Below, in pieces: positions 7,567 to 53,671 of a stretch of 64,000 nucleotides of DNA. The position numbers were made by a program, and so were the translations under genes. The DNA comes from Streptomyces sp. CA-210063 (GTDB taxonomy: Bacteria; Actinomycetota; Actinomycetes; Streptomycetales; Streptomycetaceae): assembly GCF_024612015.1 (NCBI RefSeq), contig NZ_CP102512.1, positions 4,526,001 through 4,590,000 of the forward strand, given 5' to 3'. Under the pieces are notes generated by a model. That model saw only the letters and a list, made by a program, of their open reading frames with translations, was not told where the DNA came from and did not search any database. Numbering within the stretch: position 1 is the first letter of the stretch; each line of letters starts with the position of its first letter.

Positions 7567-8281
7567 GCGTCCTGTTCGACCGGGAGTCTTGCAGGATAAG
7601 TGGTCCCCACGCCTCTGCTGTGGGTGTCTTTGCCCACGCAGGGGTTGGATCAGCCGTCGATGTCGGGGAAGGGCCGCCGGCCGACGGGGTCTCCATGTGC
7701 GTTGCGCGAGGAAGGTTCGGAGAGTGCCGCCTGGCGCAGGTGCTCGGCGAGCGCCGCGGTGGCCGTCGGCGAGGCTCGGTCCTTGACGCCCCAGGCCAGC
7801 AGATGGTGACGGCGGGCCCAGAGGTCCTGCAGTTCGCACACGTCCCCACCAAGGCATCGCAGACGCCCGCCCGCTGCACCCCCTGCCTCCGCCGATCACC
7901 GACCCGGACGCCATCGCCCACCTCGACATATGACGACGCGACCGCCTCGGCGGCACCCTCCACGAGTACCAGCATGCGGCCTGACCTGCACGGACGCGAT
8001 TCTCGGCAGGGACAAGGTTGCCCGGTGCTCCTGCGTGATACCCCGTCCAAAGGCGGCTGTCCACACCGACAGGGTTGTCACCGGCCCACCAGCGAGAATG
8101 GAACTGGACTCCCGACGACGCCGTCGCCCGATCGGAGAATCGAACGGAAGCCGCTGTAGGATCTCCACAAGCACACCTTCTCCGAGGTTCCGGCACCCTG
8201 CCCTCCCCTGTACAGATGGTCGACGCCGTAGCCGCGAAGGAGCCGCGCCAGTTGACGCTCAGGTCAACACGGCCGACTGGG
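7567..8281. other. Gene-free stretch
   Basis: Several overlapping frames are open on both strands, but none has a plausible start, ribosome site or recognisable protein. It includes the second CGTCCAAAGGCGGCTGTCCAC copy near 8044. Confidence 0.3.
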
Positions 8282-25412: not shown

Positions 25413-28400
25413 CTAGTAGGTTCCTCGCCAGGTTGGTGCGGTCTCGTCCGTTATGCGCTTGGCGAGGTTGTCGATCGATGCAACGTGGATCATGGCTTCG
25501 GAACTGGCGGTGAGGGTCTCGTAGTCGCGGGCGAGGCGGCGGTGCATCATGATCCAACCGGTTGGGTCGGCCGCGCGGCGAGGTGCTCGCCGTGAGGGCG
25601 AGTCCTGTTCCGCGCGGCCTCCCGCCGAACCGGACATGACGGTTTCCCGGTCATCCGGCTCTCCAGTGACTACTGCGTGAATGGTCTGGCAGGCCGTTCC
25701 GAATGGATACGGTCGTGGCAGATGTCGCAGGCCACGACTGTTTTGCGGCGCCGATGGAGCATGACGCGCGCCCAGTCGGAAGGCTGCCATCCGGCATGTG
25801 CGAGATCGGCGAGAGCGCGGACGTGGTGCACTTGCACGTTGCCCTTGCTTCCGCAGATCTCGCAGGTATCCGCCAGGAGTCTCGCAATGAGTTCCTTCTG
25901 CGGGTAGTCCACCCGGACAGGCTCACGATCGGCGAGTTCCGCCGCCCGCTGCCGTTGGAGGGGAATCCCACCGAATCGGGCCACCAGTGGCGTCCTGTTC
26001 TTCCGCTCGATTCGGGCCTCGAAACAGACTCGGGGCCCGTTCGGCGGTCGATTCTGGCCTTGTGCTTGGCAGCCATCTTCGACACTGACGAGCGGTGCTT
26101 GGCCGCAAGAGTCTTGAGCATAGAAGTCTCCATGACCCATTGCAGCCGATGCAGCCGGAAGACATCTCCGGCAAGCAGGTAGTACTGGACGACACCCCGA
26201 TAGACGGTCCCGAAGGTCGCCACGATCGCGTGATCGCTGCTGTTGATCAGGGCCGTCTTCTTCGCGGGTTTTCCGCGATCGGTGTAGGGGGCGCACTTGG
26301 CTTTGATCACGTCCCGTGGGACACGGAGTGCTATCTGGCCGTTGACCCGACGGTAACGGCCGGTCTTCTTCGTGTCGTTGTGCTGGGTCGTGATCTCGTA
26401 GCCGAGAGAAACCTCGCTGCCCGGGTGCGGGCGTGAGTGATCAGTGTCTTTTCCTGGGACAACTCCAGCTTGAGTTCGTCACGCAGGAACTGCCCCAGGC
26501 GTTGTTTGATCTGCTCGGCCTCGGCTTTCGGTCCGGTGAAACCGAGGAGGTGATCATCCGCATAGCGTATGTAGCGCAGCCTGCGGTATCCCGGATCGTT
26601 AGGATCCGCGCTCGGCAGACTGGCCATCCGCTGACGCAGCGCACGGGCCTGGACCCGGTCGCCGCGTCGGCGGGCTTTCGCCAGCAGATTCTGCAGCTCC
26701 AGATAGGCCGGGTTGCGGGCCCGGCGCTTCCCTCGGGTGTACTCCGGAATCAGAACTGTCTCGACGAATTCATCCAACTTGTGCAGGTAGATGTTGGACA
26801 GGATCGGGGAAGCCACCCCGCCTTGCGGCGCTCCGGAGAGCGTGGCGCCCCATCTCCAGTCCTCCAGGTATCCGGCTGTCAGCATGTTGCGCACCAGCCG
26901 CAGGAACCGCTGGTCATGAATCTTCTCGCCGAGGATCAACAGCAGGACCTCGTGGTCCAGGCTGCCGAAGCAGTCGGCGATGTTCCCTTCGATGAACCAA
27001 GACGTCCCGGTCCAGGTGTGGTCTACCTCCCGTAATGCGGTGTGGCAGCCCCGGCGGGGACGGAACCCATGAGAGCGGTCGGAGAACGTAGGCTCATAAA
27101 ATGCCTCAAGTAGAAGGCGAATCACTTCACCGACGAGCTTGTCCGACCAGGTCGGCAGTCCCAACGGGCGTGTCTTCCCATTCTTCTTCGGGATGTGGAC
27201 ACGCCGGACCGGGCGGAAGCGGTAACGCTCGTGGCGCATTGCTTCAATGATCCGGTCGATCTTCCGCTGTGACATTCCGTCCACGGTTTCCGACGTGACC
27301 CCGGGCGTCATCGCACCATGGTTGGCGTAGATGCGCCCGTAGGCCAACAGATACAACTGCGGATTGAATAACTGCCGATACAGTTCATCACACGGCAGGC
27401 CACGGCTACCGCGTTCACGCAGGACACCCAACACCGTTTTGGCGCTCTGCATTCCGCATACCTCCCGGCTTCGAGTGTCCGAATCACCTGGCCCCCTTCG
27501 CCCGATGCGGACGGCTTTCCCGTCCTCCCTGGCCGGTCGTGACTCCGGCGACTACTACGGGGCCTCCGTCGCCATAGGACTCGCGTCCCGTAGGCGATCC
27601 CACGTTCGTCCCTGTCTGTACGTTCTAGCGCGACACAGGCGTCCCACTCATCTCCTTGAATGTCCTCGCTGGACATCGCTCAGCACCCCGGAAGTGCTCC
27701 GGCCAACAATCGAAGCCGGAGCAGAGTGCGGCGCCGGTTTCAGCTGTCATTTCCGGCGGATGGGAACTTGCATCTTCTGGAGATTGGGCTTCAAACAATC
27801 CAGTCTTCGCCATATCGCGCGGGCCGCCCAGCACACCGTCCCTGACAACTGGGCCCGGTCACTGGTTTTCTGACATGCTGTTGTCCCCTTCACCTTTCGG
27901 ATCCAGGTAAGTCATCCGGCCCAGAAACCTCCTTCCGAGTTCCTCCCGACTCAGCCGGGGATACAAACAGGGCGCCTCGTGGCGCACATACTTCGTTCCA
28001 CTACCCAGCGCCTTTTCAAGACGTGAAAGCCGCGGGTCCCGGGGTTTTTGTCGACGACTTCGACATCGATTCCGAGGTTCGCGCCGCGCTCCACGACGGC
28101 CTTCTTGAAGCCGGTGTCGACCCAGCTCTTGGCGATGGTCGGGTAGGCGCTTTTGGCTTGATCGAGGAGGCGTATTCCCAGGGCGTTCTCGGAGAGGCTC
28201 GCGGCGGTGACGGTCACGGCGAGGATCAGGCCGATCGTGTCGGTGAGGATCCCTCGCTTCCGGCCCACGATCTTCTTCGCCGCATCGGTTCCCTGGCTGG
28301 TCACGGGCACATTGGTGGAGGTCTTGATGCTCTGGGTGTCGATGACGGAGGCCGTCGGTTCGGGCTTGCGTCCTTCCTTCACCCGGGCCAGGGCGGTGAG

Positions 28401-28679
28401 GTCGTAATTGAGCTGGGCGAAGATTCCCTCATCGCGCCAGGCGGCGTAGTAGAAGTAGACGGTGCCGTGGCCGGGGAAGTCGTGCGGGAGATATTTCCAG
28501 GGGATTCCGGTGCGGTTCAGATAGAGAATTGCGTTGAACACGTCGCGGAGTTCGACTTTCGCTGGCTGGCCGGTGGGTCGGCGGTCGAGCCGGGCTTTCC
28601 GCCAGGCCGTCAACGTCGGCTCGATCAGGGCCCATCGGGCGTCGGACAGGTCGCTGGGGTACGGCTTGCGCTGGCTCAC
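25413..28679 (-). CDS. IS5-type transposase, in two exons across a group II intron
   Basis: Exon 1 (28679 down to 27988) gives the N-terminus (SDLSDARWALIEPTLTAW), the IS5 zinc-free helical domain, the catalytic Asp in ASVIDTQSIKTS, and VDTGFKKAVVERG; it ends in RRWVVERS. Exon 2 (25560 down to 25413) gives GWIMMHRRLARDYETL and ends in WRGTY. Joined at these bases the exons make an unbroken 279-residue protein (840 bases, junction codon ATC) with the usual RRWVVER-x-GW-x-x-x-HRRL-x-RDYE motif containing the last catalytic Glu. The transposase can therefore only be made after splicing. GTG 28679 has no good ribosome site. Confidence 0.7.
25627..25661 (-). ncRNA. Group II intron domain V
   Basis: Minus strand: GAGCCGGATGACCGG, loop GAAA, then CCGTCATGTCCGGTTC. 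This is the 34-base hairpin with two-base bulge and GAAA tetraloop of the catalytic domain V. It lies about 66 bases before the inferred 3' splice site, leaving room for domain VI. Confidence 0.85.
25670..27452 (-). pseudogene. Group II intron-encoded reverse transcriptase/maturase, two frameshifts
   Basis: From about 27452 the reverse transcriptase is intact: RRVHIPKKNGKTRPLGLPTWSDKLV, HGFRPRRGCHTAL, GAPQGGVASPILSNIYL and the catalytic RYADDHLLGF. A two-base duplication near 26405-26408 (TC repeated on the coding strand) shifts the frame before the maturase X domain, which continues as RVPRDVIKAKCAPY. A second shift near 26050 (one C lost) precedes the nuclease domain, which has CEICGSKGNVQVHHVRAL and CDICHDRIH. 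The intron cannot make its own protein unless both are sequence errors; splicing might be served by a copy elsewhere. Confidence 0.85.
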
Positions 28680-28720
28680 GCCGTACCGTTGCCATGGATA
28701 GTGTGGAAGGGGTTGTTCCG

Positions 28721-28849
28721 ATGAATATCGGGCGGTTCTCCCGCATCTTAAAACCAGACGGACTTCCGGCAGCAGAAGTGCGTGAAACGGACCACAGGGT
28801 TCGTGTGTCGAGGGAAGGCGAACTGCGCATACGGCTGCAACCAGCATGA
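28721..28849 (+). CDS. Possible 42-aa protein inside the IS5 right arm
   Basis: ATG 28721 with AAGG upstream; MNIGRFSRILKPDGLPAAE then a charged Arg/Glu-rich tail. Not recognised. It could equally be chance, or a relic of the gene that the element entered. Confidence 0.25.
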   Translation: MNIGRFSRILKPDGLPAAEVRETDHRVRVSREGELRIRLQPA

Positions 28850-43144: not shown

Positions 43145-43482
43145 GGGATCGGGCGGTCCTTGGCCGCCGGGGTGACGGGCTGGATGGTCAGTACGCCCGC
43201 CCGGACCAGGCGCAGCGCGAGGGAGGCCGCGCTGCCGCGCGGGTGGGCCGCGTATCCGGCGCAGATCGCGGGCGCGTCGGTGCCCAGCGTGGAGTGGCAG
43301 ACGATGTGCCCCTCGTTGGCGATGGCGTCACGGATCATCTGGGCGAGCCGGCCGGGTGTGAGGTCCATGAGGTTTCCCGGCCGGAAGATGCAGGTCGTGC
43401 ACTTCTCGGTGCAGACGCGCACGGTCCATGTGGCGGGGTCTGCGACGTCGTCGCGGAGCTTGTCGGAACCCTCGTCGATCAC
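43096..43482 (-). CDS. Cysteine-cluster phage protein
   Basis: 128 aa from GTG 43482, overlapping the PAPS-reductase-like gene (GTGA). CTEKCTTCIFRPGNLMDLTPGRLAQMI near residue 24 and HIVCHSTLGTDAPAICAGYAAH near 60-80 give four to five Cys spaced like a metal centre. Proteins of this form are frequent in actinophages; an iron-sulfur or zinc site is likely, and the function is unknown. Confidence 0.6.
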   Translation of the reverse strand: MIDEGSDKLRDDVADPATWTVRVCTEKCTTCIFRPGNLMDLTPGRLAQMIRDAIANEGHIVCHSTLGTDAPAICAGYAAHPRGSAASLALRLVRAGVLTIQPVTPAAKDRPIPCSTSPLPPAPKRGRR

Positions 43483-44270
43483 CGCTGCACCTCCGTCCGC
43501 GACGCGGAGTGGAGGGTGCTGACGGCGTCGTCGAGGGTGGGGGCGGCCTGGTGGCGGCGCCGGAGTTCCGACAGGGGGAGCGGGCGGCCGACTCCGTTGC
43601 GCCGTTCACGCAAGATCGCGACGTCACCGAGCTTCGCGCGGAGTGCCTCTTCTTCGGCTTCGGCGTGCGCGTACCGGTCGGGCAGTACCTCCAGGAGGCG
43701 TAGCCACTGCTTCTGTCCGGCCCTGGCGCACGTGGCCCCGCAGTTTTTGTGGCTGAACCCGAGCTCGTACAGGCTCGGTGGTTCGACTCCCAACGCCCTT
43801 GCCTCATCCAGGAGTTCTTGCTTGGTGCGCGCGGGCTCCCACTTGGAGCACAGGGGGAAGCGGGTCTGCCAGGGCTTCCAGTTGCGGGCAATGGCGGGGA
43901 TGCGGGCCCGGTCGCGCGGCGTGTTTTCGATGCCGATGTACACCAACGAGTCGTCCGGTCCGGCGTGCTGCCGCATCCAGTCCAGGCAGGGGATCTGTTT
44001 GAGGGCCCTGGAGCACGGGGTGATGCGGTCGTTGCCGAGGAACCTCTTGTCGTGGAAGACCTGCCAGGGGGTTCGGCCGTCGGACACCTTGGTCAGCGGT
44101 ACGCCGAGGAGACGGCTGGTGTCGTCGGCGAACCGCCACAGGTCGGGATCCTCGATGCCGGTGTCCGCGATGAGCAGGACCAGGTCGTCGGTGCCGTGCC
44201 GTTTCGCCACGCGCACGGCTGCGGCGAAGCTGCCGATGCCGCCGCTGAATTGGATGACGTGGCGGGTCAT
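43479..44270 (-). CDS. PAPS-reductase-like ATP-pyrophosphatase (PP-loop) protein
   Basis: 263 aa from ATG 44270, in ATGA overlap with the gene before. The PP-loop is FSGGIGSFAAAVRVAKRHG near residue 8, followed by LLIADTGIEDPDLWRFADD, and RITPCSRALKQIPCLDW. A Cys motif (LGFSHKNCGATCARAG, about 190-205) replaces the CGIH motif of true reductases. Such phage enzymes adenylate a substrate; relatives serve in DNA phosphorothioation (DndC) or tRNA thiolation, others have no known role. Confidence 0.75.
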   Translation of the reverse strand: MTRHVIQFSGGIGSFAAAVRVAKRHGTDDLVLLIADTGIEDPDLWRFADDTSRLLGVPLTKVSDGRTPWQVFHDKRFLGNDRITPCSRALKQIPCLDWMRQHAGPDDSLVYIGIENTPRDRARIPAIARNWKPWQTRFPLCSKWEPARTKQELLDEARALGVEPPSLYELGFSHKNCGATCARAGQKQWLRLLEVLPDRYAHAEAEEEALRAKLGDVAILRERRNGVGRPLPLSELRRRHQAAPTLDDAVSTLHSASRTEVQR

Positions 44271-44842
44271 GACGCTGCCCCCCGCGTGCAGGCGCAGACG
44301 GCATGGGCGTCGTGGGCGACGAGTTGCTTCCAGCGGTGCCATGGGCAGGGGCTGACCAGGCCGGGCCCGGGCGGGTGCTGAGTGATCGCGAAGCGCGGGT
44401 CGTACGGGCCGCCCATGGCGCGGACGGGTTCGTACGTGCTGCACACGAGGCAGCGGCCGACCCGCCCTCCGGGCTGCTCCTGGTAGAGGACTGTGCGGGA
44501 GCCGGGGCAGTAGCGGGGACGGTGCAACTCGCGTGGGTTGAAGACGAGTTCGCGGCCTTCGGGCTGGGGAATCTGTCCCGCGCCGGCGGCGCGACCTTCG
44601 CAGGTTCCGCAGATGCGTTCGCCGGTGACGGGAATGGTCCGGGTCAGGTAGTCGCCCGAGACGTACGGACCGCACCACAGGTTGAAGACGACGCGGCCGA
44701 CGGCCTCGCGGTAGCCGGAGCGGGGCCGGTGCCAGCGTGACATCGCGCGGGTGCGGACCAGTGGGGGCGCCTCCTCCAGGGGATGCGCGTCCGAGCGGTC
44801 CCGGATGCCGGTGACCGGGGGCAGGAGCCGGACGGTCATCAC
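44267..44842 (-). CDS. Multi-cysteine (zinc-ribbon) phage protein
   Basis: 191 aa. Cys pairs ICGTCEG (about 77) and GRCLVCSTYE (about 130), plus YCPGS and CPWHRWKQL, suggest two zinc sites. A WHRPRSGYREAV segment near the start is basic. It is coupled by ATGA to both neighbours, so it belongs to the PAPS-like/TGT-like chain. Not recognised. Confidence 0.6.
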   Translation of the reverse strand: MMTVRLLPPVTGIRDRSDAHPLEEAPPLVRTRAMSRWHRPRSGYREAVGRVVFNLWCGPYVSGDYLTRTIPVTGERICGTCEGRAAGAGQIPQPEGRELVFNPRELHRPRYCPGSRTVLYQEQPGGRVGRCLVCSTYEPVRAMGGPYDPRFAITQHPPGPGLVSPCPWHRWKQLVAHDAHAVCACTRGAAS

Positions 44843-45241: not shown

Positions 45242-46669
45242 TCAGGCGGCGAGGGCGAAGAGGTCCTGGCCGGTGATGGCTTCGACGAGGCAGCACATGA
45301 GGACCTCGGCAGCGGGCGGGGTGACGGCGTTGCCGTATTGGCGGACCTGTTCACGCCGGGTGCCGAGCACCTTGTAGGTGTCGTTGAAGGCCATGCCGAG
45401 GCCGATCTCGTCGGGGTCGAGCATGCGGAGCAAGCACTCGTCGACGGTGATCGGCTTGGTCAGCGGCGGGGTGACCAGGGCGTGCCGCTCGACGGTGGTG
45501 ACGGTGCTCAGCGGGTCACTCGCGGGCCGGGCGTTGCCGTTGCCGTAGTACGGGACGAGCAGGGGCGGGGTGACGAGCGCGTGGTGGAGGCCGGAGGCGC
45601 AGAACGTGGCGAGGGGTTCGTCGACACCGCGCGCCTTCTTCTGTGATCCGCCGCCGCGCATTTCCGCGATGAACGGCAGGAATTGGCCGGGCCCGTAGGC
45701 GATGGCGGTCTCCTGGCGGGTGGTGAACGTCCGCATCGGCCCGCCGACCAGCGACCACGGCGACTTGCCGTCCCGGCCTTCCATGGGCACGGCGAAGGGC
45801 CAGCCTTCGTACCGGTCGATGCCGGCCTGCACGCGATCCCGGGTCTTCTCGACGATGGGCCGCTTGCGGGAGCCGATGGGGGTGCCGGGCTTCTTCCAGT
45901 TGATGGCGGCGGCCGGGAGTACTGGTGGCTCGACCACCTGCTTGCAGCCGGGCGCCGGGCAGACGTATACGTACTGCGCCCGGTAGCGGCCCCACTCGAT
46001 GCCGTTCTTGAAGGACTGGCGTGCGGCGATGACCCCGTGGTCGGGACAGTCGGCCTCCGGGCTGAGCCACTTGTCCCAGTTCGGTTCGCGGATGCTCTTC
46101 AGCCAGTACATGACGTACATGCGGTCGCGGGACTGCGGGGCGAGCGGGCTGCCGAAGCGGGGGCGGGCAAACATGCTGTTGAGGTAGATGACCTTGATCT
46201 TGTAGCCGAGGTCCTCCATGCGGATCTTCCAGGAGCGCCAACCGATCCAGTTGATGAGGTCGACGACGTTCTCGACGATCCCGCCGAGGGTGGGCTTGCC
46301 GCGCAGGAGCATTGCTTCGAGGTAGCGCGGGACGTCGTCCATGGTGGCGCGGCTGCGCTCGGCGGCCTCGGACGGGAGGATCTCGCCGAACAGGTCGGGC
46401 TGCCGGTCGGCGGCGATCCGGACGCCACGGGCGATGGAGTGGTTGGTGCACTCGGGGCTGGCCCACAGGATGTCGACCCGCGGGTATCGGCGGAAGTCGA
46501 TCTGTGAGATGTCGGCGCAGTCGTGCAGGACGTTGGGGAAGTTGAGGCTGTGGGTGTCCACGGCTAGTTGCCAGTGGTTGGCGGCGAGGAGCATGGCGCA
46601 GCCGGGCACGCGGGCTATGCCGAGAGAGGCTCCTCCAGCACCGGCGTAGAAGTCGCCGACGGTGAGCAC
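45242..46669 (-). CDS. C5-cytosine DNA methyltransferase
   Basis: 475 aa from GTG 46669, preceded by CCTCTTGGAGACC. Motif I is FYAGAGGASLG (about 7-17); motif IV is WASPECTNHS with the catalytic Cys (SPEC instead of PCQ, about 70-78); motif VI ENVVDLINW (about 135); motif VIII QSRDRMYVMYW; motif X YGNAVTPPAAEVL near the C-terminus. The region between 190 and 330 holds the target-recognition part with a Cys pair (CPAPGC). It probably protects phage DNA from host restriction; the target sequence cannot be read. Confidence 0.9.
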   Translation of the reverse strand: MLTVGDFYAGAGGASLGIARVPGCAMLLAANHWQLAVDTHSLNFPNVLHDCADISQIDFRRYPRVDILWASPECTNHSIARGVRIAADRQPDLFGEILPSEAAERSRATMDDVPRYLEAMLLRGKPTLGGIVENVVDLINWIGWRSWKIRMEDLGYKIKVIYLNSMFARPRFGSPLAPQSRDRMYVMYWLKSIREPNWDKWLSPEADCPDHGVIAARQSFKNGIEWGRYRAQYVYVCPAPGCKQVVEPPVLPAAAINWKKPGTPIGSRKRPIVEKTRDRVQAGIDRYEGWPFAVPMEGRDGKSPWSLVGGPMRTFTTRQETAIAYGPGQFLPFIAEMRGGGSQKKARGVDEPLATFCASGLHHALVTPPLLVPYYGNGNARPASDPLSTVTTVERHALVTPPLTKPITVDECLLRMLDPDEIGLGMAFNDTYKVLGTRREQVRQYGNAVTPPAAEVLMCCLVEAITGQDLFALAA

Positions 46670-46728
46670 GGTTGGTCTCCAAGAGGGAGTGCGCGGGCGG
46701 CAGTTGGGCCCGACACATGGGGTGGTGG

Positions 46729-47184
46729 TCAGGTGGCGGCGCGCGAGGCCAGGTACTTGGCGCGGCGGGCGGGCGCCGTGAGTTCGTATGCCGGGGTGCA
46801 GGCCCGGCAGGGCTTCTCGCCCGCCCGCAGGTGCTGCCGGTATCCGTCATCGGTGCCGCAGCGGTAGCGGGGCTCGGCCCGTTCGGCCAACTCCGTGTTG
46901 TCGGGCCCGGATTTGCGGTGGTCGAAGGCGGTCGCGAGGACCTGGCCGTCGCGCCACACTCGCCCCCCGCACACTCCGTCGAAGCCGCTCTGTCCGGGTG
47001 CGACCGCTTCCACGCATTCCTGCCGGAAGGGGCAGCGGCGGCATACGTCGAGCTGGCTGCGGGAGTGGTCGACGCGTTCGCGGGCGTCGTCCTCCGCCTT
47101 GTCGGCGGTAGCGGTGGACTGGCGGTGCACGAAGCCGGCGATGCCCTTGCAAGGGGCGGCTTCGATCCAGCCGGTGCGGGTCAC
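46729..47184 (-). CDS. WhiB-like iron-sulfur regulator with C-terminal zinc-like tail
   Basis: 151 aa from GTG 47184 with GGAG six bases before it. Four cysteines in WhiB order: APCKG (about 12), then CRRCPFRQEC (about 48-57). FDGVCGGRVWRDG follows, the equivalent of the G(V/I)WGG turn. The C-terminal half has YRQHLRAGEKPCRACTPAYEL, a further Cys pair seen on phage relatives. WhiB proteins bind a [4Fe-4S] cluster and the main sigma factor; phage versions (as in TM4) can alter host septation. Confidence 0.8.
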   Translation of the reverse strand: MTRTGWIEAAPCKGIAGFVHRQSTATADKAEDDARERVDHSRSQLDVCRRCPFRQECVEAVAPGQSGFDGVCGGRVWRDGQVLATAFDHRKSGPDNTELAERAEPRYRCGTDDGYRQHLRAGEKPCRACTPAYELTAPARRAKYLASRAAT

Positions 47185-47215
47185 GGGTGTCTCCGGGCGC
47201 GAGTAATCGGGCGGG

Positions 47216-47473
47216 CTAGAAGGGGGGTTCGTCGCTGAAGGGCCCGCGGGGGCGGCGGCGCGGGAGCCGGAGGAGGAACAGGTGGTGCTCCGGCTTCCAG
47301 CACCCGCAGATGACCCAGTTGGTTCCGCCGTAGTCACCGTCCGGGGCCGCGTAGTCCTCGTTCCATCCGCCCTGCCCGTGGCATTCGGTGCAGCGGGGGT
47401 GGGGGGTGTCGGTGAGTTCGAGGCCATGACGGGGCCAGCTGGTAAGGCGAAGGCGGATTCGGTGACCGCGCAT
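47216..47473 (-). CDS. DnaJ-zinc-finger-like small protein
   Basis: 85 aa from ATG 47473, behind the hairpin plus CCTCTTGGAG leader. The stretch CTECHGQGGWNED (about 26) and ICGCWKP (about 54) form one half of a DnaJ-type CxxCxGxG zinc site. Basic ends. Role unknown. Confidence 0.6.
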   Translation of the reverse strand: MRGHRIRLRLTSWPRHGLELTDTPHPRCTECHGQGGWNEDYAAPDGDYGGTNWVICGCWKPEHHLFLLRLPRRRPRGPFSDEPPF

Positions 47474-47530
47474 GCAGATCTCCAAGAGGTTGGTCCGGGG
47501 CCCGCCCCTCGACGGGGCGGGCCGGCGCGG

Positions 47531-47686
47531 TCAGCGGTGGTCGGCGTGGCGGGCGTGGTAGTTGCCGCAGGTCGTGCAGAGGAGGCGGCGGTTTCGGCGG
47601 TCCCAGCGGACCTGCTCCAGCACGAGGAAGGCGAGGCCTCCGGCAACAGCCAGGCCGAGCACGAGGAGGACGTAGAGGATCGTCAC
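47531..47686 (-). CDS. 51-aa membrane peptide with zinc-knuckle tail
   Basis: GTG 47686 with GGAG before it, overlapping the previous stop (GTGA). A single span (ILYVLLVLGLAVAGGLAFLVL) is followed by a basic stretch and CTTCGNYHARHADH, a Cys-x2-Cys-x3-His-type site at the C-terminus. No family recognised. Confidence 0.55.
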   Translation of the reverse strand: MTILYVLLVLGLAVAGGLAFLVLEQVRWDRRNRRLLCTTCGNYHARHADHR

Positions 47687-48321
47687 GGCTGCTCCTTGCG
47701 GGCGGGGCAGTCGGATGCCGTGGTGAGGCGGACCAGGGCGACCTGGATGCCGAACAGGTCGCCGATGGTGCGCGCGTAGTCGAGGTCCTTGTTCAGCGCG
47801 GCCCGCTCGGCGTCGTTGGCCGGATGCGCGAAGAGGCAGTGGCAGGCGCTCTTGGTGGCCTCCGGTCGTGTCGGGGCTGCCTGGAGGCTGGCGAGGAGGG
47901 CCTCGATCCGGAGGTGGAAGTCCGGGAGGTGCAGGTGGTGCTCGTTGCGGATGAGCCACTCAGTGATCGCGCCGAGCATCGGAGCGGTGGCGCTGCCGTT
48001 CTCCTCCTGGTCGCCGCCGTCGGTGGAGTCGTACACGAGGTAGTCGACGGTCGGGTTGTCGTGGTGGGCGCGGATGACCGTCCAACCCGCGAGTTCGGCG
48101 GGGTCGACCGGCAGGCATTCGCCAGCGGCGATCAGCAGGTGCGTGCCGTCGGGGAGGTCGGCGACGACGCTGTACTCGCCGCCGCACAGCTCCACGTCGG
48201 TGACGAGGCCGAGGGTGCGAAGCGGGGTGATGACGTGGCTGTAGTTGTGCCACAGCTTCTGCCACAGGGGGGCGTCGAGTCGGTTGTGGTCAGGCAGGGG
48301 CGCCAGCGCCAGGTTGTTCAC
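47683..48321 (-). CDS. Hypothetical phage protein
   Basis: 212 aa from GTG 48321, chosen because GGAGGAGACC stands directly before it. Beta-rich first half (YSVVADLPDGTHLLIAAGECLPVDPAELAGWTVIRAHHD), helical second half with HHLHLPDFHLRIEALLASL. Not recognised; several actinobacterial mobile elements encode similar acidic proteins. It is the first gene behind promoter repeat 4 and the palindrome at 48341. Confidence 0.6.
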   Translation of the reverse strand: MNNLALAPLPDHNRLDAPLWQKLWHNYSHVITPLRTLGLVTDVELCGGEYSVVADLPDGTHLLIAAGECLPVDPAELAGWTVIRAHHDNPTVDYLVYDSTDGGDQEENGSATAPMLGAITEWLIRNEHHLHLPDFHLRIEALLASLQAAPTRPEATKSACHCLFAHPANDAERAALNKDLDYARTIGDLFGIQVALVRLTTASDCPARKEQP

Positions 48322-48340
48322 GGTCTCCTCCAAGAGGCCC

Positions 48341-48374
48341 GGCGTTTACGTTACAGAGTAAACGCCTATCTTTG
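48341..48374. promoter_or_regulatory. Operator-like palindrome and GTAAACGCCTATCTT motif
   Basis: GGCGTTTAC and GTAAACGCC (48341-48349 and 48358-48366) form a perfect 9-bp inverted repeat; the right arm runs on into CTATCTTTG. The motif GTAAACRCCTATCTT recurs at 54057, again just upstream of a minus-strand gene. Confidence 0.6.
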
Positions 48375-48442
48375 AAGCCGGATCGGCCTTGCGAGTTCAT
48401 CGACCCGAGAGGGGCAGAAGCCTCACCCTCAACTCGACACCC

Positions 48443-48457
48443 TTATTTTATAGGCAT
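48443..48457 (-). promoter_or_regulatory. Phage promoter/operator repeat, copy 4 (core only)
   Basis: Minus strand ATGCCTATAAAATAAGGG; the long upstream block of copies 1-3 is absent. It faces the 48321 gene at about 120 bases. Confidence 0.65.
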
Positions 48458-48489
48458 TACGGAGTGTGATCCAATCCTGGCGATGAGCG

Positions 48490-49506
48490 TTATCTTCTTG
48501 TGACTTGACGTCCAGCTGGGCGCTCCCTATTCCGGATCGCCCCCTCACGGGCGGCTCTCTGAGCCTCCAGCCGCGCGTTCTGGTACCCCTCGGGGTCCGC
48601 CTCCCGTCGGGCCAGGACATCCCGCCTGTCGGCCCGCATCTTTTCCAACCGCTCCTGCTCAGCCCGTCGCGCCGCGTCTGCGGCCTCCCGCCTGTCGTGC
48701 TCCCGGGCAGCTCGGGGAGACGTACCGCACGCCCGGCAGTTGGCTCCAGGCCGTTCCGTGTGTTTCCGGCAACGGGCAGCGGGAGCAGGCGGATTGCTCT
48801 CGGCGGCAGCGGGCTCCTCTGCGGCGTCAGCCGTGGGGGTAGGGGGGGTACAGGAAGGATCAGAGGAAGGAAAAGAAGGAAAGGAAGGGGTTCCACCGGT
48901 GGAACCGTCAGGGTTCCACGGTTGAAACTCAGTGGGTTCCACCGGTGGAACCCACTCTTCACCCCCATCCGGGTTCCACCCGTGAAACCCTGCGGCCGTC
49001 GAGGGCTCCTCTTCCGAGCCAGGATCCGACTGGCCGCCCTGCTCCCCCTCGTCGTTGACGGCCTTGGCGCGGGCCGCCCGGGCTGCCTCACGATCCTCCA
49101 CGTCCCTACGGGTCATCGCGGGCCTCGACGGCTGGGCTCTGGTCACCCCTCTGCGGACCTTGTTCTGGTTCTTCGGCTTCGTCTCCCGCTGCGCCTTACG
49201 CGCTTCCAGTTCGGCTCGTGTGGGTGTGTCAGGCACGCCGTGGGGGAAGATCCGGTAGGCGGCGGAACGGCCTTCCTTGCCCGTCTCCAGCCGCTCCACC
49301 AGGCCCTTGGCGACCAGCTCGGTGACGATCGTGATGGCGCGTTTCTCCGTGACACCGATCCACGCTTCCAGGCGTAGCCCGCCGGGCCGAGCAATGCGGG
49401 TCTCGTCGTCGGCGCTGTCGGCGATCTTCATCAAGGCCAGCTTCTGCCCCTGGTTCACCTCTTCGGGCGGCAGGTAGGCGGCGGCGACCAGCAGGGCTAT
49501 GGACAT
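48490..49506 (-). CDS. Phage replication initiator (lambda O-like) with internal origin
   Basis: 338 aa from ATG 49506 with AAGGGAAAG before it. The N-terminal 90 residues are a winged helix (KLALMKIADSADDETRI, LEAWIGVTEKRAITIVTELVAKGLVERLETG). A long Pro/Gly/Trp-rich linker follows, then a basic helical C-terminus with a Cys site (CRKHTERPGANCRACG) and coiled coil. This is the plan of phage initiators such as lambda O, in which the winged domain binds iterons inside the gene. Four iterons are indeed found in the part coding for the linker. Confidence 0.7.
   Translation of the reverse strand: MSIALLVAAAYLPPEEVNQGQKLALMKIADSADDETRIARPGGLRLEAWIGVTEKRAITIVTELVAKGLVERLETGKEGRSAAYRIFPHGVPDTPTRAELEARKAQRETKPKNQNKVRRGVTRAQPSRPAMTRRDVEDREAARAARAKAVNDEGEQGGQSDPGSEEEPSTAAGFHGWNPDGGEEWVPPVEPTEFQPWNPDGSTGGTPSFPSFPSSDPSCTPPTPTADAAEEPAAAESNPPAPAARCRKHTERPGANCRACGTSPRAAREHDRREAADAARRAEQERLEKMRADRRDVLARREADPEGYQNARLEAQRAAREGAIRNRERPAGRQVTRR
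48850..48990. other. Probable phage replication origin: four iterons and a purine/pyrimidine tract
   Basis: GGTTCCACCGGTGGAACC, a perfect 18-bp palindrome, occurs at 48889 and 48935. Variants GGTTCCACGGTTGAAAC (48912) and GGTTCCACCCGTGAAACC (48972) complete the set; spacings are 23, 23 and 37 bp. To the left, 48850-48890 is almost pure A/G on the plus strand. In the gene's direction the order is iterons then pyrimidine tract, as iterons then unwinding region in lambda ori. Confidence 0.65.
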
Positions 49507-49549
49507 TCGGGCTTTCCCTTGAGCGGTGCGGGGCGGGGCGTCGGGGAGC

Positions 49550-49834
49550 TCATCTGTGTCGGAGGGATGGCACTCCGTCGGGGAAGACCCGGTAACTGAC
49601 CTCGTCTTCGTGGCGGTCGACCGCAAGCAGTCCGCTCTCCGCCAGTTCCCAGACGATCTCGTCCGCCTGGTTCTCCGAGACGCCGGCCCACGACGCGATC
49701 CGCTGGAGGGTGGGGGTGGAGATACGTGTCTGGTCGTCGGCGCTGTCGGCGATCTTCATCAGGGCGAGCTTCTGCAAAGGGGTCACCTGCCTCGGCGACA
49801 GGTCGGCGGCGGCGAACAACAGGTGGACGGACAT
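49550..49834 (-). CDS. Stand-alone winged-helix paralogue of the initiator N-terminus
   Basis: 94 aa from ATG 49834 with AAGGAG six bases upstream. The sequence (VTPLQKLALMKIADSADDQTRISTPTLQRIASWAGVSENQ, then YRVFPDGVPS) is clearly homologous to residues 1-95 of the downstream initiator, including LALMKIADSADD and YRIFPHGVP. It lacks the linker and C-terminus. It could compete for the iterons and so restrain replication. Stop and next start are 43 bp apart. Confidence 0.7.
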   Translation of the reverse strand: MSVHLLFAAADLSPRQVTPLQKLALMKIADSADDQTRISTPTLQRIASWAGVSENQADEIVWELAESGLLAVDRHEDEVSYRVFPDGVPSLRHR

Positions 49835-49936
49835 AGCACTCCTTGGGGAAAGCACGATCGGGGAGGGAGAGGCCGTGCACGCCACGGCCGGAGCCCAGGG
49901 GCGCGGCGTGCACGGCGGTCAGTGGGGAAGTCGAGG

Positions 49937-51082
49937 TCAGGTCGTGCCGGTGCGAGCGGGGCTGACCTTGATGGAGCGCGCCGTGGTCCGGCGGACAGTG
50001 CGCATCGGCACGGCGATCCCGGCCTCTTGCAGCAAGGCCACGGCGCGGTCCAGATCCGGTTCCGTCGGCAGGTCAACGCCCAGCTCACGGAAGCGGTTGA
50101 TGACGGCGGCCCGGTCGACTTCCTCGTCCGTGACGTCTCGGCCGCCCTGCCACTTCAGCTCGTTGTCGCCGTACACACCTGGGGCGGAGGCATCGAGCTT
50201 GGCCCGGGCGAGCCTCTTGAACTTCTTGCCCTGGGTCTCCAGTTCGTGGCCGTGAACGTACTCGGCCAGCGCCTGGGCACGGTCGGCGTCGTCGTGGATG
50301 AGGATGGTCTGCACCGGGGCTCCGGGACGGACGCCGTGCCCCCAGCACCTGGTGCGGAAGACGCAGTAGTCGCAGATCGCGTCGAGGCCCGGCCCGTCGA
50401 AGTCCCGCTCGGCCTGCTCCGGGTGCTCGTAGCTGCGCACGAGTTCAACCCACCAGCGGGCGCGCTGCGCCTCCGCTTCGTCGTAGGCAAACTCCTGGAT
50501 GTGCTCCTCGCCGTTGTCCCGGCACACGAACCGGAAACGGATGCGCTGCACATCGATCGGGCCGAGCCTCGACAGGGGCCGCTGGCCCCATCGGTCTTCG
50601 AATCCCACGGACCGCAGCAGGCCCGCGTACAGGTACACCTGCCGGATCTCCGCCTCGGTGGCTCCGTAGCGGACGACGCGGTCCCACACGAACAGGCTCT
50701 TCGTCTTCACGTCCTCGACGGTCACGACGTCGGCCGGCTGCTTCGGTCGCAGCCGCTTGGGCAGACGGCGCGCGGTGGCTGCGTCCAGGTGAACGGCGTC
50801 GATGTGTCCACGGATCAAGTCGTCTCCGACCGCGGTCTCGATCAGCCAGCCGTACTCGCGCTTCGCCGCCGTGAGGAGGCCCTCGTGCAGGTAGGTGCCG
50901 AGGATCGCAGCCCGCTTATCGGAGTCGTCGGTCGGCTCGCTCTCGTCGAGGATGTACGCCGCGCGTCTTTCGCACACGGTGTCGGACGCGCCCAACTGTC
51001 GCTGGCGGGAACGGGATCGTCTCGCGTCCGCTTCGTGCGCGGCAGGCCAGAGCGAGGGGGTCTTGGTGGTGAGTGTGGTCAT
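49937..51082 (-). CDS. PD-(D/E)XK nuclease (RecB/Cas4-like)
   Basis: 381 aa from ATG 51082, behind a hairpin and CCTCTTGGAGACCTG. The core is GHIDAVHL (acid in HID, about 125) followed by VVTVEDVKTKSLFVWDR with the E-x-K signature (about 150). A Cys site (SDTVCERR near the N-terminus; CDYCVFRTRCWG near 285) resembles the iron-sulfur clusters of AddB/Cas4-type exonucleases. Probably a 5' exonuclease acting with the RecA-like ATPase in phage recombination. Confidence 0.8.
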   Translation of the reverse strand: MTTLTTKTPSLWPAAHEADARRSRSRQRQLGASDTVCERRAAYILDESEPTDDSDKRAAILGTYLHEGLLTAAKREYGWLIETAVGDDLIRGHIDAVHLDAATARRLPKRLRPKQPADVVTVEDVKTKSLFVWDRVVRYGATEAEIRQVYLYAGLLRSVGFEDRWGQRPLSRLGPIDVQRIRFRFVCRDNGEEHIQEFAYDEAEAQRARWWVELVRSYEHPEQAERDFDGPGLDAICDYCVFRTRCWGHGVRPGAPVQTILIHDDADRAQALAEYVHGHELETQGKKFKRLARAKLDASAPGVYGDNELKWQGGRDVTDEEVDRAAVINRFRELGVDLPTEPDLDRAVALLQEAGIAVPMRTVRRTTARSIKVSPARTGTT

Positions 51083-51143
51083 CAGGTCTCCAAGAGGGAC
51101 CGGGCCCCGCCCCATGGGCAGGGGCCCGGTGAGTGCGGGGGTG

Positions 51144-51911
51144 TCAGGCGTCGTGGACCGCTTCGAGCCGGTGGGCACCGCAGTGGTCGCAGAAGTTCGA
51201 GGTGCCGTTCAGCGGCGCCACGAAGCCGTGCGGCTCGGTCCTGTTCAGCGCGTCGATCTGCATCTGTGCCACGAGGAGATCCGCGGACAGGCGCAGTCCT
51301 TCCTCCCGCATGACTTGGACGGCGCGCGCCATCCCAGCAGCCGTCGGATCCTGCGGCGAAGGGCCGCTGTCCTGGGGCCCGACGGCGACGAGACCGAGCT
51401 CCTCGCAATGCCGCTCGTCGAGCGTCTGGCCGACAGGCTGTCCGTCCTGGGTGACACAACGACTGGTGGAGCTGCGGGGCTTGATCGAGGCGTTGGGAAC
51501 CACGTCGGCCAGTGCCCAGTGGTTTGCCGATGACGGCACGGACGTTGCGGGCGACAGGAGCCGCATGCCCTCCCAGAGGGCGATCACGGGTGGCAGCGCC
51601 CGATGGTAGGCGCCGGTGACCCAATGGGTGGGCGTGTAGCCGCTGGTGCAGGAGTTCGGCCACCCGGCGCAGTGGCAGAGGTCCTCGTGTATCGCGTCGG
51701 CTACGGCGCGGTTCGCGACCCGGGCGAGCGCCGCCAGCTCCACGTCCGACAGCTCGATGCGGGGAAGGGCGGGCCAGCCCTCAGAGGAGCTGGCCTCCTT
51801 CTTCCAGTCTGTGACCGCCTCGGCCCGTACTGACGCGACGAGTTGCGTCGCCATGCGCTCGGTCCAACCGGCTTGCACCATGGCCTTGATCAGGAGGTCT
51901 CGCGCGCTCAC
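51144..51911 (-). CDS. Hypothetical phage protein with C-terminal zinc site
   Basis: 255 aa from GTG 51911, overlapping the previous stop. Helical N-terminus (LLIKAMVQAGWTERMATQLVASVRAEAV), a middle with CHCAGWPNSC, and FCDHCGAHRLEAVH at the end. No family recognised. Coupled to the winged-helix gene upstream, it belongs to the recombination/replication unit. Confidence 0.6.
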   Translation of the reverse strand: MSARDLLIKAMVQAGWTERMATQLVASVRAEAVTDWKKEASSSEGWPALPRIELSDVELAALARVANRAVADAIHEDLCHCAGWPNSCTSGYTPTHWVTGAYHRALPPVIALWEGMRLLSPATSVPSSANHWALADVVPNASIKPRSSTSRCVTQDGQPVGQTLDERHCEELGLVAVGPQDSGPSPQDPTAAGMARAVQVMREEGLRLSADLLVAQMQIDALNRTEPHGFVAPLNGTSNFCDHCGAHRLEAVHDA

Positions 51912-52561
51912 GCCGCCGCCTCCGAACTACCCGGTCCGGCTGCGCTGTTGTGGGCGTATTGCGCCTCGCCGATGAACCGCCAGGTGGCGATCGTGTTTTC
52001 CACGGCCGCGAGCGTGGCCAGATCGTCCGCGCCCGCTGCTTCCGCCGACAGCTCGCCGAGGAACGCCTCCAGATCGTCCGCGTCGAGATACCTCGCCCAG
52101 ACGAGCGCGGGCGGGTAGTGCTCCAGTCCCTCGACGGCCATCCGACGGAGCAACTTGACGGCATTCGCCCGGCCGGGTTCGAGTTCGGTGTCGGGAGGCA
52201 GCACCTCGATCACGTCGGCGGCCCCCAACAGGGCGTTCACCCAGTCGGGATCCTGCTGTGCCGAGGGCGTGACGGCCCTGCTGAGGGTGTAGCTGCGGAT
52301 GCCGTCCGCCTCGTGCATGATCAGGAATCCGCGACGGTGCAGGTTCTGGAGGTCTCGGCGCGCGATCCGGCGGCCCGGTGCTGCGGAACCGCGTACGGCC
52401 TTGACCCTGGCCGTCGTCCACCGCCCGCCATGCGTCCGCATCGTGTCGAGGAGCTGGGCGAGCCGTCTCGGCATCGAGGCGGCTCCGAGTCCCTGGTTGC
52501 CGGTGATGCCCGGCGTCGATGCCTGCTGCTCCCCCGGCTTGACGGTTGCTTGCTGCGTCAC
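51908..52561 (-). CDS. Winged-helix-like phage protein
   Basis: 217 aa. RLAQLLDTMRTHGGRWTTARVKAV then RRDLQNLHRRGFLIMHEADGIRSYTL (about 35-95) reads as a winged-helix DNA-binding domain. The rest is acidic and helical (LVWARYLDADDLEAFLGELSAEAAGADDLATL). Four-base overlaps on both sides place it in the same translationally coupled block as the RecA-like ATPase. Confidence 0.6.
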   Translation of the reverse strand: MTQQATVKPGEQQASTPGITGNQGLGAASMPRRLAQLLDTMRTHGGRWTTARVKAVRGSAAPGRRIARRDLQNLHRRGFLIMHEADGIRSYTLSRAVTPSAQQDPDWVNALLGAADVIEVLPPDTELEPGRANAVKLLRRMAVEGLEHYPPALVWARYLDADDLEAFLGELSAEAAGADDLATLAAVENTIATWRFIGEAQYAHNSAAGPGSSEAAA

Positions 52562-53637
52562 GCTGCCTCGCCGCCCTTCTCACGCTCAGCGGCTGCGCGC
52601 AGCCTGGCGGCCGGGTCGTCTGAGACCGCGTCCGTGAAGTCCCGCTCCGGGGTGGTGATCTCGGTGTGCCGGGCCCTGATGGCGGCCTGAACGGTGGTTG
52701 CCTCACCGCGGGTCAACCCGGACTCGTCGGGCTTGGTGGCCCGCCACAAGGCGCTCAGGTCATCGGCGGTCGTGCAGGCGGCGACCCGTTGCAGCCAGGG
52801 CTGTACCCGGTCCCCGGCGAGGGCGGGCATCACGCGCGGCGCGGAGGCGGTGGAGCAACCGAGGCTCTCGAAGACGAGCGTTTCGATGGAGAAGTCCGGG
52901 ACCTTGAGCGGCCGGCGCTTCTCGACGCGCAGTTTGAGGGAGCGGGCCTTGATGATCTGCGGGTCTTCGTCCCGCAGGAAGCGGACCCACACGGTGACGT
53001 CGAACCCGAGGTCCTTGTGGCCGCTGACCTTCCACTCCTTGCGGCCGGTGACCGGGTTGCCGAAGTCGTCGACGGCGGAGACCTGCTTGCCGCGAGCGAG
53101 GACGATGGCGATGCCGGGCAGGGTCTGAAGCAGGTGCATGATCCGCTGCCAGCGTTCGACAGCGTCGTTCCATAGGTTCATGGGGATGTCGACGGCGCTG
53201 TCCGGATCTTCGGCGAGGGCCTTGGCGTTCTTCTTGGTCCGGCGTGCTCGCTCCTGTGTCCAGTTCGTGAGCAGGCGCCACAGTGCGGACACGCTGTCGA
53301 TGGTGAGGACGACGGGTGGTTCACCAGCTGCGGCTGCCTCGCGAGCAGCGTCGTGCACGGCTTCGATCTGCTCAAGGATGTCCCGGTAGGTGCCGTCGTG
53401 CTCGATGATCACGTAGTCGGCTCCGGGGATAGCCGCGTATTCGTCGGCGCTGCCTTCGGCGAGGTCGATCCAGTACATCTGGCCGATGCGCTTGGACGCG
53501 GAGAACTCGGCGGCCGAGTAGGTCTTGCCGCTCGCCTCCTCGCCCTCGATGAGGATCAGCGGCCATGGCACAACGCCAGTGGGCTTGCGGGTCTTGAGTT
53601 TGGGCCTGGCCGGGCGGGCCGGGGCAGGGGTAGTCAC
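52558..53637 (-). CDS. RecA-like phage recombinase/ATPase (AAA_24, Sak4-like)
   Basis: 359 aa from GTG 53637; GGAGAGA of the CCTCTTGGAGA leader stands just before it. Walker A is LIEGEEASGKTYSAAEF (about 30-46), Walker B is VVLTIDSVSALWRLL (about 110-124), and a late strand gives PGIAIVLARGKQV. The C-terminal 90 residues are a helical extension. Proteins of this group anneal or pair single strands in phage recombination. Together with the PD-(D/E)XK nuclease and RusA it makes a full recombination set. Confidence 0.75.
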   Translation of the reverse strand: MTTPAPARPARPKLKTRKPTGVVPWPLILIEGEEASGKTYSAAEFSASKRIGQMYWIDLAEGSADEYAAIPGADYVIIEHDGTYRDILEQIEAVHDAAREAAAAGEPPVVLTIDSVSALWRLLTNWTQERARRTKKNAKALAEDPDSAVDIPMNLWNDAVERWQRIMHLLQTLPGIAIVLARGKQVSAVDDFGNPVTGRKEWKVSGHKDLGFDVTVWVRFLRDEDPQIIKARSLKLRVEKRRPLKVPDFSIETLVFESLGCSTASAPRVMPALAGDRVQPWLQRVAACTTADDLSALWRATKPDESGLTRGEATTVQAAIRARHTEITTPERDFTDAVSDDPAARLRAAAEREKGGEAA

Positions 53638-53671
53638 GTCTCTCTCCAAGAGGCAGTGGCTGGTGGGCAGT

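What the first reader, a model, noticed from the sequence alone, without database searches (positions are those of the whole stretch)
48850..48990. Phage origin with palindromic iterons inside an O-like initiator gene
Seen: four GGTTCCAC-type repeats, two of them perfect 18-bp palindromes, at 23/23/37 bp spacing in the linker-coding part of a winged-helix gene, next to a 40-base purine-only tract. Known: lambda O binds iterons within its own gene, beside an easily melted tract. The layout here is the same, but the repeats are GC-rich palindromes and the melting region is a purine/pyrimidine run rather than AT-rich, so it would be a high-GC version of that design.
Basis: partly seen in the sequence, partly recalled or inferred. 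Interest (0 to 1): 0.75.

Follow-up and report, generated by a model that had tools for sequence, protein, structure and literature searches.

The report
Phage replication origin inside initiator gene
A virus hidden in a Streptomyces chromosome appears to carry its DNA-copying start site inside the gene for the protein that would open it, laid out as in phage lambda but built for GC-rich DNA, and related viruses suggest which part of the protein reads the site.

Summary
The four palindromic repeats are real, at the stated places, in the linker-coding part of an O-like winged-helix gene (48490-49506, minus strand) of a Streptomyces prophage. Comparison strongly supports an origin. Of 87 related, partly redundant loci, 69 keep all four sites at the same spacing in the initiator frame, although the sites lie in three reading frames. 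Fourfold-degenerate third positions inside the module are nearly frozen (mean entropy 0.39 in 24 columns, 1.28 in 78 outside). The module is larger than reported: a pyrimidine tract, the gene's least stable stretch in 65 of 73 loci, then a C-run and hairpin. A second initiator class with different iterons shares that C-run and hairpin. Two iteron classes exist, and residue 116 follows them (K in 23 of 23; L in 28 of 28 plus one tied locus), but over only 3-4 independent switches. Binding and replication are untested. The design is known from lambda and pSK41; this family was not found in the searches made. Corrections: the purine-only run is 29 bases, not 40, and lambda's melting region is also purine/pyrimidine-asymmetric.

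The parts
48490..49506 (-). O-like replication initiator gene, 338 aa, ATG at 49506
   Evidence: PHROG 270/6643/8540, replication initiation (E 3.6e-5, 1.5e-4, 1.7e-3, scanned with the longer ORF 48490-49626); 174 homologues at E<=1e-3; HTH_36 in 49 of 50 aligned members at E<=0.01, the window's own below Pfam's cut-off
49222..49506 (-). winged-helix DNA-binding domain, residues 1-95
   Evidence: AlphaFold2, block pLDDT 82-96; structural matches are general winged helices
49159..49161 (-). residue 116 in the basic arm PKN..[K/L]AR, which follows the iteron class
   Evidence: K in 23 of 23 class-A loci, L in 28 of 28 class-C loci and in the one tied locus
48972..48989 (.). iteron 1 in gene order (GGTTCCACCCGTGAAACC on + strand)
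48935..48952 (.). iteron 2, perfect palindrome GGTTCCACCGGTGGAACC
48912..48929 (.). iteron 3, imperfect (GGTTCCACGGTTGAAACT)
48889..48906 (.). iteron 4, perfect palindrome, next to the tract
48848..48887 (-). candidate unwinding region: pyrimidine-rich on the coding strand, 45% GC in this 40-mer of a 68% GC gene
   Evidence: least stable 36-bp window of the gene starts at its edge in 65 of 73 loci; third positions conserved
48816..48848 (-). C-run and conserved hairpin (inner stem-loop CGGC-TGAC-GCCG at 48822-48833; outer stem CCCC/GGGG has one mismatch here)
   Evidence: alignments A3 and A5 and pair counts
48721..48771 (-). C-terminal C-x2-H-x7-C-x2-C motif, residues 246-262, probable zinc knuckle (zinc is inferred)
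   Evidence: C246, H249, C257 and C260 at least 90% conserved among 50 members; also in the second initiator class
49550..49834 (-). upstream truncated paralogue of the winged-helix domain, without the basic arm or tail
   Evidence: 52% identity over 91 residues; translation; PHROG O-like
49937..51178 (-). conserved neighbour: PD-(D/E)XK / exonuclease-like gene
   Evidence: Pfam below cut-off, PHROG exonuclease and CRISPR/Cas-associated; cluster present in 24 of 26 chosen loci
52558..53649 (-). conserved neighbour: AAA/Sak4-like ATPase
   Evidence: cluster present in 18 of 26 chosen loci

Best explanation
This is the lytic replication origin of a Streptomyces prophage, embedded in the gene of its initiator, an arrangement like lambda O. 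Inferred mechanism: the N-terminal winged helix, with a basic arm around residue 116, binds each 18-20 bp palindrome as a dimer; four dimers at 37/23/23 spacing form a nucleoprotein complex; this opens the adjacent low-stability pyrimidine/purine tract on the gene's 3' side; the exposed strand beyond it, with a C-run and a small hairpin, and the protein's zinc-knuckle tail help bring in the host helicase and primase. The linker peptide coded by the origin probably serves as a disordered tether. Shown by sequence: the repeats, their frame-independent geometry, synonymous constraint, tract, hairpin covariation, class/residue-116 association, phage context. Inferred: binding, dimers, melting, helicase recruitment.
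For: Four sites at 37/23/23 in the initiator frame in 69 of 87 relatives, in frames 2,0,2,1; 3 more loci carry the array in the downstream half of a locus with a duplicated winged helix. Third-position entropy 0.39 in 24 module columns, 1.28 in 78 others. Tract: mean GC 0.55 against 0.70 for the gene, 93% pyrimidine, least stable stretch in 65 of 73 genes. Residue 116 follows the iteron class. PHROG replication-initiation matches. Neighbours: exonuclease-like and Sak4-like genes, methyltransferase, endolysin, tail genes, RusA, tape measure; synteny in 26 chosen loci. Predicted winged helix, disordered linker, C-terminal helices. A second initiator class that shares tail and hairpin has a winged helix matching 267 of 50,697 phage records, none over 80% of the query; of the 30 rows listed, 4 are annotated as replication proteins.
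Against: No match to the family in 50,697 phage records or, for one class-C homologue, in 72,556 plasmids, so no experimental anchor. No helicase or loader recognised in the ORFs scanned (not every ORF). Stability is a nearest-neighbour estimate only, and 8 of 73 genes have their least stable window elsewhere. L050 and L086 keep two sites and lack the tract; L064 has 34 instead of 37. 12 of 87 loci show no array. The window's own hairpin folds no better than shuffles (z -0.62). Few independent class switches: sign test p 0.25, or 0.5 without the tied locus L076.
Confidence: 0.85

Rival explanations
1. The palindromes are operator sites for the protein acting as a repressor or autoregulator of the early operon, not an origin.
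For: The fold is a general winged helix, with MarR-family proteins among the top structural matches; a truncated winged-helix paralogue sits just upstream in the window.
Against: The sites lie more than 500 bp inside the coding sequence; a conserved low-stability tract and, in most loci, a hairpin follow them in constant order; the PHROG matches are replication families.
Confidence: 0.08
2. The array is a site for another protein, for example a partition centromere or packaging site, that happens to lie in this gene.
For: The half-site GTTYCAC resembles the Streptomyces chromosomal parS half-site (recalled, not from a call).
Against: The class of the array follows residue 116 of this very protein over 51 clear loci plus one tied; the perfect palindrome is found nowhere else in the genome.
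Confidence: 0.05
3. The repeats are a by-product of a repeated peptide (WNPDG and the like) in a low-complexity linker.
For: The encoded linker does contain WNPDG twice.
Against: Sites are in three reading frames with spacings that are not multiples of 3, and synonymous positions are nearly frozen.
Confidence: 0.01
4. The hairpin acts in the initiator mRNA (translation, stability or a priming transcript) rather than as single-stranded DNA in the origin. This competes only with the hairpin step of the best explanation.
For: Pair counts cannot tell RNA from DNA; lambda origin activation needs transcription (passages of PMC5043065).
Against: It lies mid-gene beside the low-stability tract and is shared by initiators whose other origin parts differ.
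Confidence: 0.3

Closest known systems
Phage lambda ori within gene O (O initiator)
   Same: Four 18-bp iterons in the middle of the initiator gene joined to a 38-bp AT-rich region; O binds as dimers; the AT-rich region has almost all purines in one strand (passages of PMC3349717, PMC7466680 and PMC5043065).
   Different: Iterons here are GC-rich, near-perfect palindromes at 37/23/23; the tract averages 55% GC; a C-run and hairpin follow; zinc-knuckle-like tail; no loader recognised next to it.
Staphylococcal plasmid pSK41 Rep (RepA_N)
   Same: N-terminal binding domain, central linker coded by the origin with four Rep boxes, C-terminal domain (passages of PMC5703833). Foldseek's first rows include chains titled initiator, MDR initiator and Rep-DNA complex; that these are pSK41 Rep is recalled.
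   Different: No RepA_N match; GC-rich sites; the C-terminal part is predicted as long helices.
pPR9 Rep with pfam13730 N-terminal domain
   [quoted passage not shown]).
   Different: Staphylococcal plasmid with a pSK41-like C-terminus; sequences not compared here.
Streptomyces linear plasmid pSLA2 internal origin
   Same: Recalled as a phage-like origin with iterons in the rep1 coding region; the paper is not held.
   Different: Not compared directly; a class-C homologue had no tblastn hit in PLSDB.

Membership tests
Lambda-type in-gene origin (works like) | Multiple iterons inside the initiator's own gene | tested here: met
Lambda-type in-gene origin (works like) | Easily opened region directly beside the iterons on the gene's 3' side | tested here: met
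   by computed stability only: least stable window there in 65 of 73 genes
Lambda-type in-gene origin (works like) | Initiator binds the iterons and opens the region | not testable with these tools
   needs purified protein
Lambda O protein family | Sequence relation to O | tested here: inconclusive
   PHROG 8540 'replication initiation O-like' E 0.0017, PHROG 270 E 3.6e-5
Lambda O protein family | Helicase-loader gene (P) downstream | tested here: inconclusive
   the next conserved gene (216 aa; cluster in 22 of 26 chosen loci) has no Pfam or PHROG match at E<=0.01; a novel loader is not excluded
RepA_N (pSK41 type) | RepA_N domain at the N-terminus | tested here: not met
   Pfam scan of 50 members at E<=0.01: HTH_36 in 49, MarR_2 in 5, PRP1_N in 1, no RepA_N
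RepA_N (pSK41 type) | Four boxes in linker-coding DNA between N- and C-terminal domains | tested here: met
PF13730 HTH_36 | Domain match above the curated cut-off | tested here: inconclusive
   49 of 50 members match at E<=0.01, best 5.9e-9; the window protein scores 16.2 bits, under the cut-off of 25
Streptomyces chromosomal parS | GTTTCACGTGAAAC-type site bound by ParB (consensus recalled) | not tested
   no parS reference was fetched; sites here have a 2-bp centre, GTTYCAC-NN-GTGRAAC

The most novel reading that the evidence does not exclude
Streptomyces phages share a portable origin architecture in which the iteron-binding half (winged helix, iterons, unwinding tract) is exchanged as one block, while a constant cis element (C-run plus hairpin) and a constant zinc-knuckle tail stay together as a helicase/primase-loading module; within one class one base of the half-site (GGTTCC[A/C]C) is read by residue 116 of a basic arm outside the winged helix, so origins change specificity by a one-residue, one-base co-switch.
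Probability: 0.33. Interest if true: 0.75.

Novelty: new variant of a known kind. Interest (0 to 1): 0.6.

Why it matters
It gives a natural series of in-gene origins in high-GC bacteria in which site, reader and downstream element can all be aligned. That makes two old questions testable: how an initiator and the iterons inside its own gene change specificity together, and what, besides the melted tract, an origin supplies for loading the replication machinery. It would also supply a new family of Streptomyces phage replicons.

Tried and rejected
Cultured relatives: tblastn of the window protein and of a class-C homologue against 50,697 phage records gave nothing, and of the class-C homologue against 72,556 plasmids nothing. 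A 38-nt, 84% DNA match of the hairpin segment in mycobacteriophages Miko and Rachaly (E 0.06, 0.005) lies in gene 20 among capsid genes of Miko, not in repA; rejected as chance. The peptide-pattern scan with the single window protein found no viral relative; only the alignment query worked.

Residue 116: class was called from the left half of the four sites. 51 loci are clear; L076 is a 2:2 tie that the script put in class C. With it the class needs 4 changes on the tree, without it 3; residue 116 needs the same number each time; supported independent pairs 3 or 2, all concordant, p 0.25 or 0.5. Held-out: 13 further loci, of which only 3 are distinct from the discovery set; all 3 fit. Among 120 listed database proteins (of 174 hits; no DNA), residue 116 read K in 105, L in 8, M in 4, unread in 3, and several L or M proteins have linkers that imply mixed half-sites. 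So it is a strong association, not a strict code. An earlier half-site count counted both strands and duplicates and is not used.

GC skew falls from about +0.18 to +0.01 across the site, but no control was run and it rises again in the tail genes; not used. A PDB profile search found nothing at E<=0.1. Rows dropped before the codon and class counts: 73 to 53 by k-mer redundancy (L086 among them), then L050 (two sites only), leaving 52. The module borders used were chosen.

Full report
What is there. The window is part of one contig of 10.86 Mb; the nearest database protein (95% identity) is from Streptomyces europaeiscabiei. The finding lies in a prophage. Genes beside it match an exonuclease and a Sak4-like ATPase, a DNA methyltransferase, endolysin and minor tail protein, tail fibre, RusA-like resolvase and, beyond the window, a tape measure protein. 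The gene is 48490-49506 on the minus strand (338 aa), with weak but consistent PHROG matches to replication initiation families (E 3.6e-5, 1.5e-4, 1.7e-3).

The observation. Four repeats at 48889, 48912, 48935 and 48972 with 23/23/37 spacing are exact. The two perfect palindromes are the only ones of the pattern GGTTCCACNNGTGGAACC in the genome; in the window 3 matches with up to 3 mismatches stand against 0.05 expected, 0 of 100 shuffles. The purine-only run is 29 bases, in a 40-mer with 37 purines and 50% GC, unique in the 64 kb.

Relatives. The palindrome pattern found 27 stretches in IMG/VR. In 16 of them it belongs to an array of two to five sites with spacings of 23, 23, 37 and partly 33, in an open frame of the same kind; 11 are lone matches. 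A protein profile found 36 viral and 51 genome loci, partly the same phages. Of these 87, 69 have four sites at 37/23/23 in the initiator frame; L064 has 34/23/23; L050 and L086 have two sites; L040, L079 and L080 carry the array in the downstream half of a locus whose winged-helix part is duplicated. In some of the 69 the third site is weak. The other 12 are a contig end (L108) or match only the C-terminal part (L067, L109-L118). The full-length gene is uncommon: 8 of 199 Streptomyces genomes at E below 1e-60, the window's own included; in an order-wide sample 10 of 197 genomes match at E<=1e-8, all in that genus, while one search also gave Kitasatospora, Streptantibioticus and Actinacidiphila records.

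Selection on DNA, not protein. The sites fall in frames 2,0,2,1, so a repeated peptide cannot explain them. In 52 non-redundant genes the third positions of fourfold-degenerate columns have mean entropy 1.22 before the array, 0.40 in it, 0.37 in the tract and 1.28 after (60, 10, 10 and 22 columns). With the module taken, after the fact, as gene positions 514-692 it is 0.39 in 24 columns against 1.28 in 78 (Mann-Whitney 3.8e-10; columns and sequences are not independent). The tract keeps T-ending codons where the N-terminal part has GC-ending ones (AT3 0.55 against 0.12).

The tract. It lies on the gene's 3' side of the array. Over 73 genes its mean GC is 0.55 against 0.70 for the gene, with 93% pyrimidines on the coding strand; the least stable 36-bp window of the gene starts within -20..+45 of the array's end in 65 of 73.

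Two iteron classes and residue 116. By the left half of the sites, 23 of 52 genes read CCAC (class A) and 28 CCCC (class C); L076 is a tie, put in class C. Residue 116, in the motif PKN..[K/L]AR after the winged helix, is K in all 23, and L in all 28 and in L076. Of residues 1-135, the next best column agrees in 48 of 52. On a tree of residues 1-108 (bootstrap not settled) the class needs 4 changes, at least 3 on well-supported branches, and residue 116 also 4; without L076 both need 3. The supported independent pairs (3, or 2 without L076) all go the same way, too few for significance (p 0.25 or 0.5). Counting both halves, K arrays have 4-8 of 8 A-type and L arrays 0-3 of 8 (27 and 31 distinct arrays); L076, the mixed L array, sits inside the K clade. 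Three distinct held-out arrays fit. Proteins with M at 116 exist. A causal reading is inference.

The hairpin and a second initiator class. After the tract the genes share a C-run (CCCCCCTACCCCC in most) and a hairpin with inner stem CGGC-TGAC-GCCG. A second class (L067, L109-L114, L116, L117, L140, L153 and others) has a different winged helix, different repeats (CGGTTCACC type in those checked) and a different low-GC tract (44-56% in the 45 nt read), yet the same C-run, hairpin and zinc-knuckle-like tail. Over 67 sequences (52 of the first class, 15 of the second; 47 distinct) 93.6% of cells pair against 90.5% in shuffles; 11 cells have changes on both sides against 2.1; slid versions pair 44-62%. 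The most variable pair joins two third codon positions (GC 32, AU 7, UA 1, GU 3, other 4). The inner stem is perfect in 56 of 67 rows and broken in 11. Against: many AU rows are related; the window's own outer stem has a mismatch and its fold is no better than shuffles (z -0.62), as is L066 (0.11), while L087, L111 and L085 score -1.76, -2.96 and -1.60. The second class's winged helix resembles proteins in 267 phage records, and 4 of the 30 rows listed are annotated as replication proteins.

Neighbours in relatives. In 26 chosen loci (window included) the clusters of the exonuclease, the 216-aa gene and the methyltransferase occur in 24, 22 and 23, and the Sak4-like gene in 18; 7 loci have a gene that I take by eye for a RecT annealase.

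Context of knowledge. Lambda ori has four 18-bp iterons and a 38-bp AT-rich region inside O (passages of PMC3349717; PMC7466680); its AT-rich region has almost all purines in one strand and its iterons bind O dimers (passages of PMC5043065). pSK41 has its origin with four boxes inside rep, coding a dispensable linker, and pPR9 has a pfam13730 N-terminal domain (passages of PMC5703833). Streptomyces plasmids with iterons beside rep are described (passages of PMC3583192). Passages of PMC4569894, PMC10797057 and PMC7157519 were also seen. Searches combining Streptomyces with prophage, iterons, replication origin, lambda O, linear plasmids and actinobacteriophage initiators listed no paper whose title or abstract start described this family; two searches showed 10 of 32 and 10 of 116 papers, and the library lacks most subscription journals. 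pSLA2 as a 'phage-like' origin is recalled.

Verdict. An in-gene origin of the lambda kind, in a family not found in print by these searches, with three added features: three-frame geometry kept with few exceptions, class/residue co-variation, and a shared hairpin module. New variant of a known kind. The odds of the novel case were lowered slightly (0.35 to 0.33) because one class switch rests on the tied locus.

Noticed in passing
window 49550-49834 (-): A truncated copy of the winged-helix domain (52% identity) just upstream of the initiator, lacking the basic arm and tail; L040, L079, L080 and L122 also have one. It could be a negative regulator competing for sites. The motif scan for it in the other loci was too strict to give a frequency.
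   Followed up: partly
L132 1459-2466, L141 1396-2457, L142, L143: A related initiator (winged helix E about 1e-11 to the family profile) with a different array of repeats (CAGTGTCCG at 8 places in L132 and 7 in L141, both strands); another possible in-gene origin type.
   Followed up: partly
L115 and L118, about 7850-7960: A further initiator type with a similar zinc-knuckle tail, and CAATCTGGCC-type repeats seen in L118.
   Followed up: no
window 26331-27452 (-): Reverse transcriptase gene (RVT_1, E 7.5e-26) near a transposase-like gene at 27951-28847.
   Followed up: no
window 43479-44678 (-): PHROG match to phage phosphoadenosine phosphosulfate reductase (E 4e-36), a possible auxiliary or DNA-modification gene.
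   Followed up: no
window 47683-48333 (-): 216-aa gene conserved downstream of the initiator in 22 of 26 chosen loci without Pfam or PHROG match; a candidate partner of the initiator.
   Followed up: no
window 46000-51000: GC skew drops from about +0.18 to +0.01 across the origin candidate; no control run.
   Followed up: no
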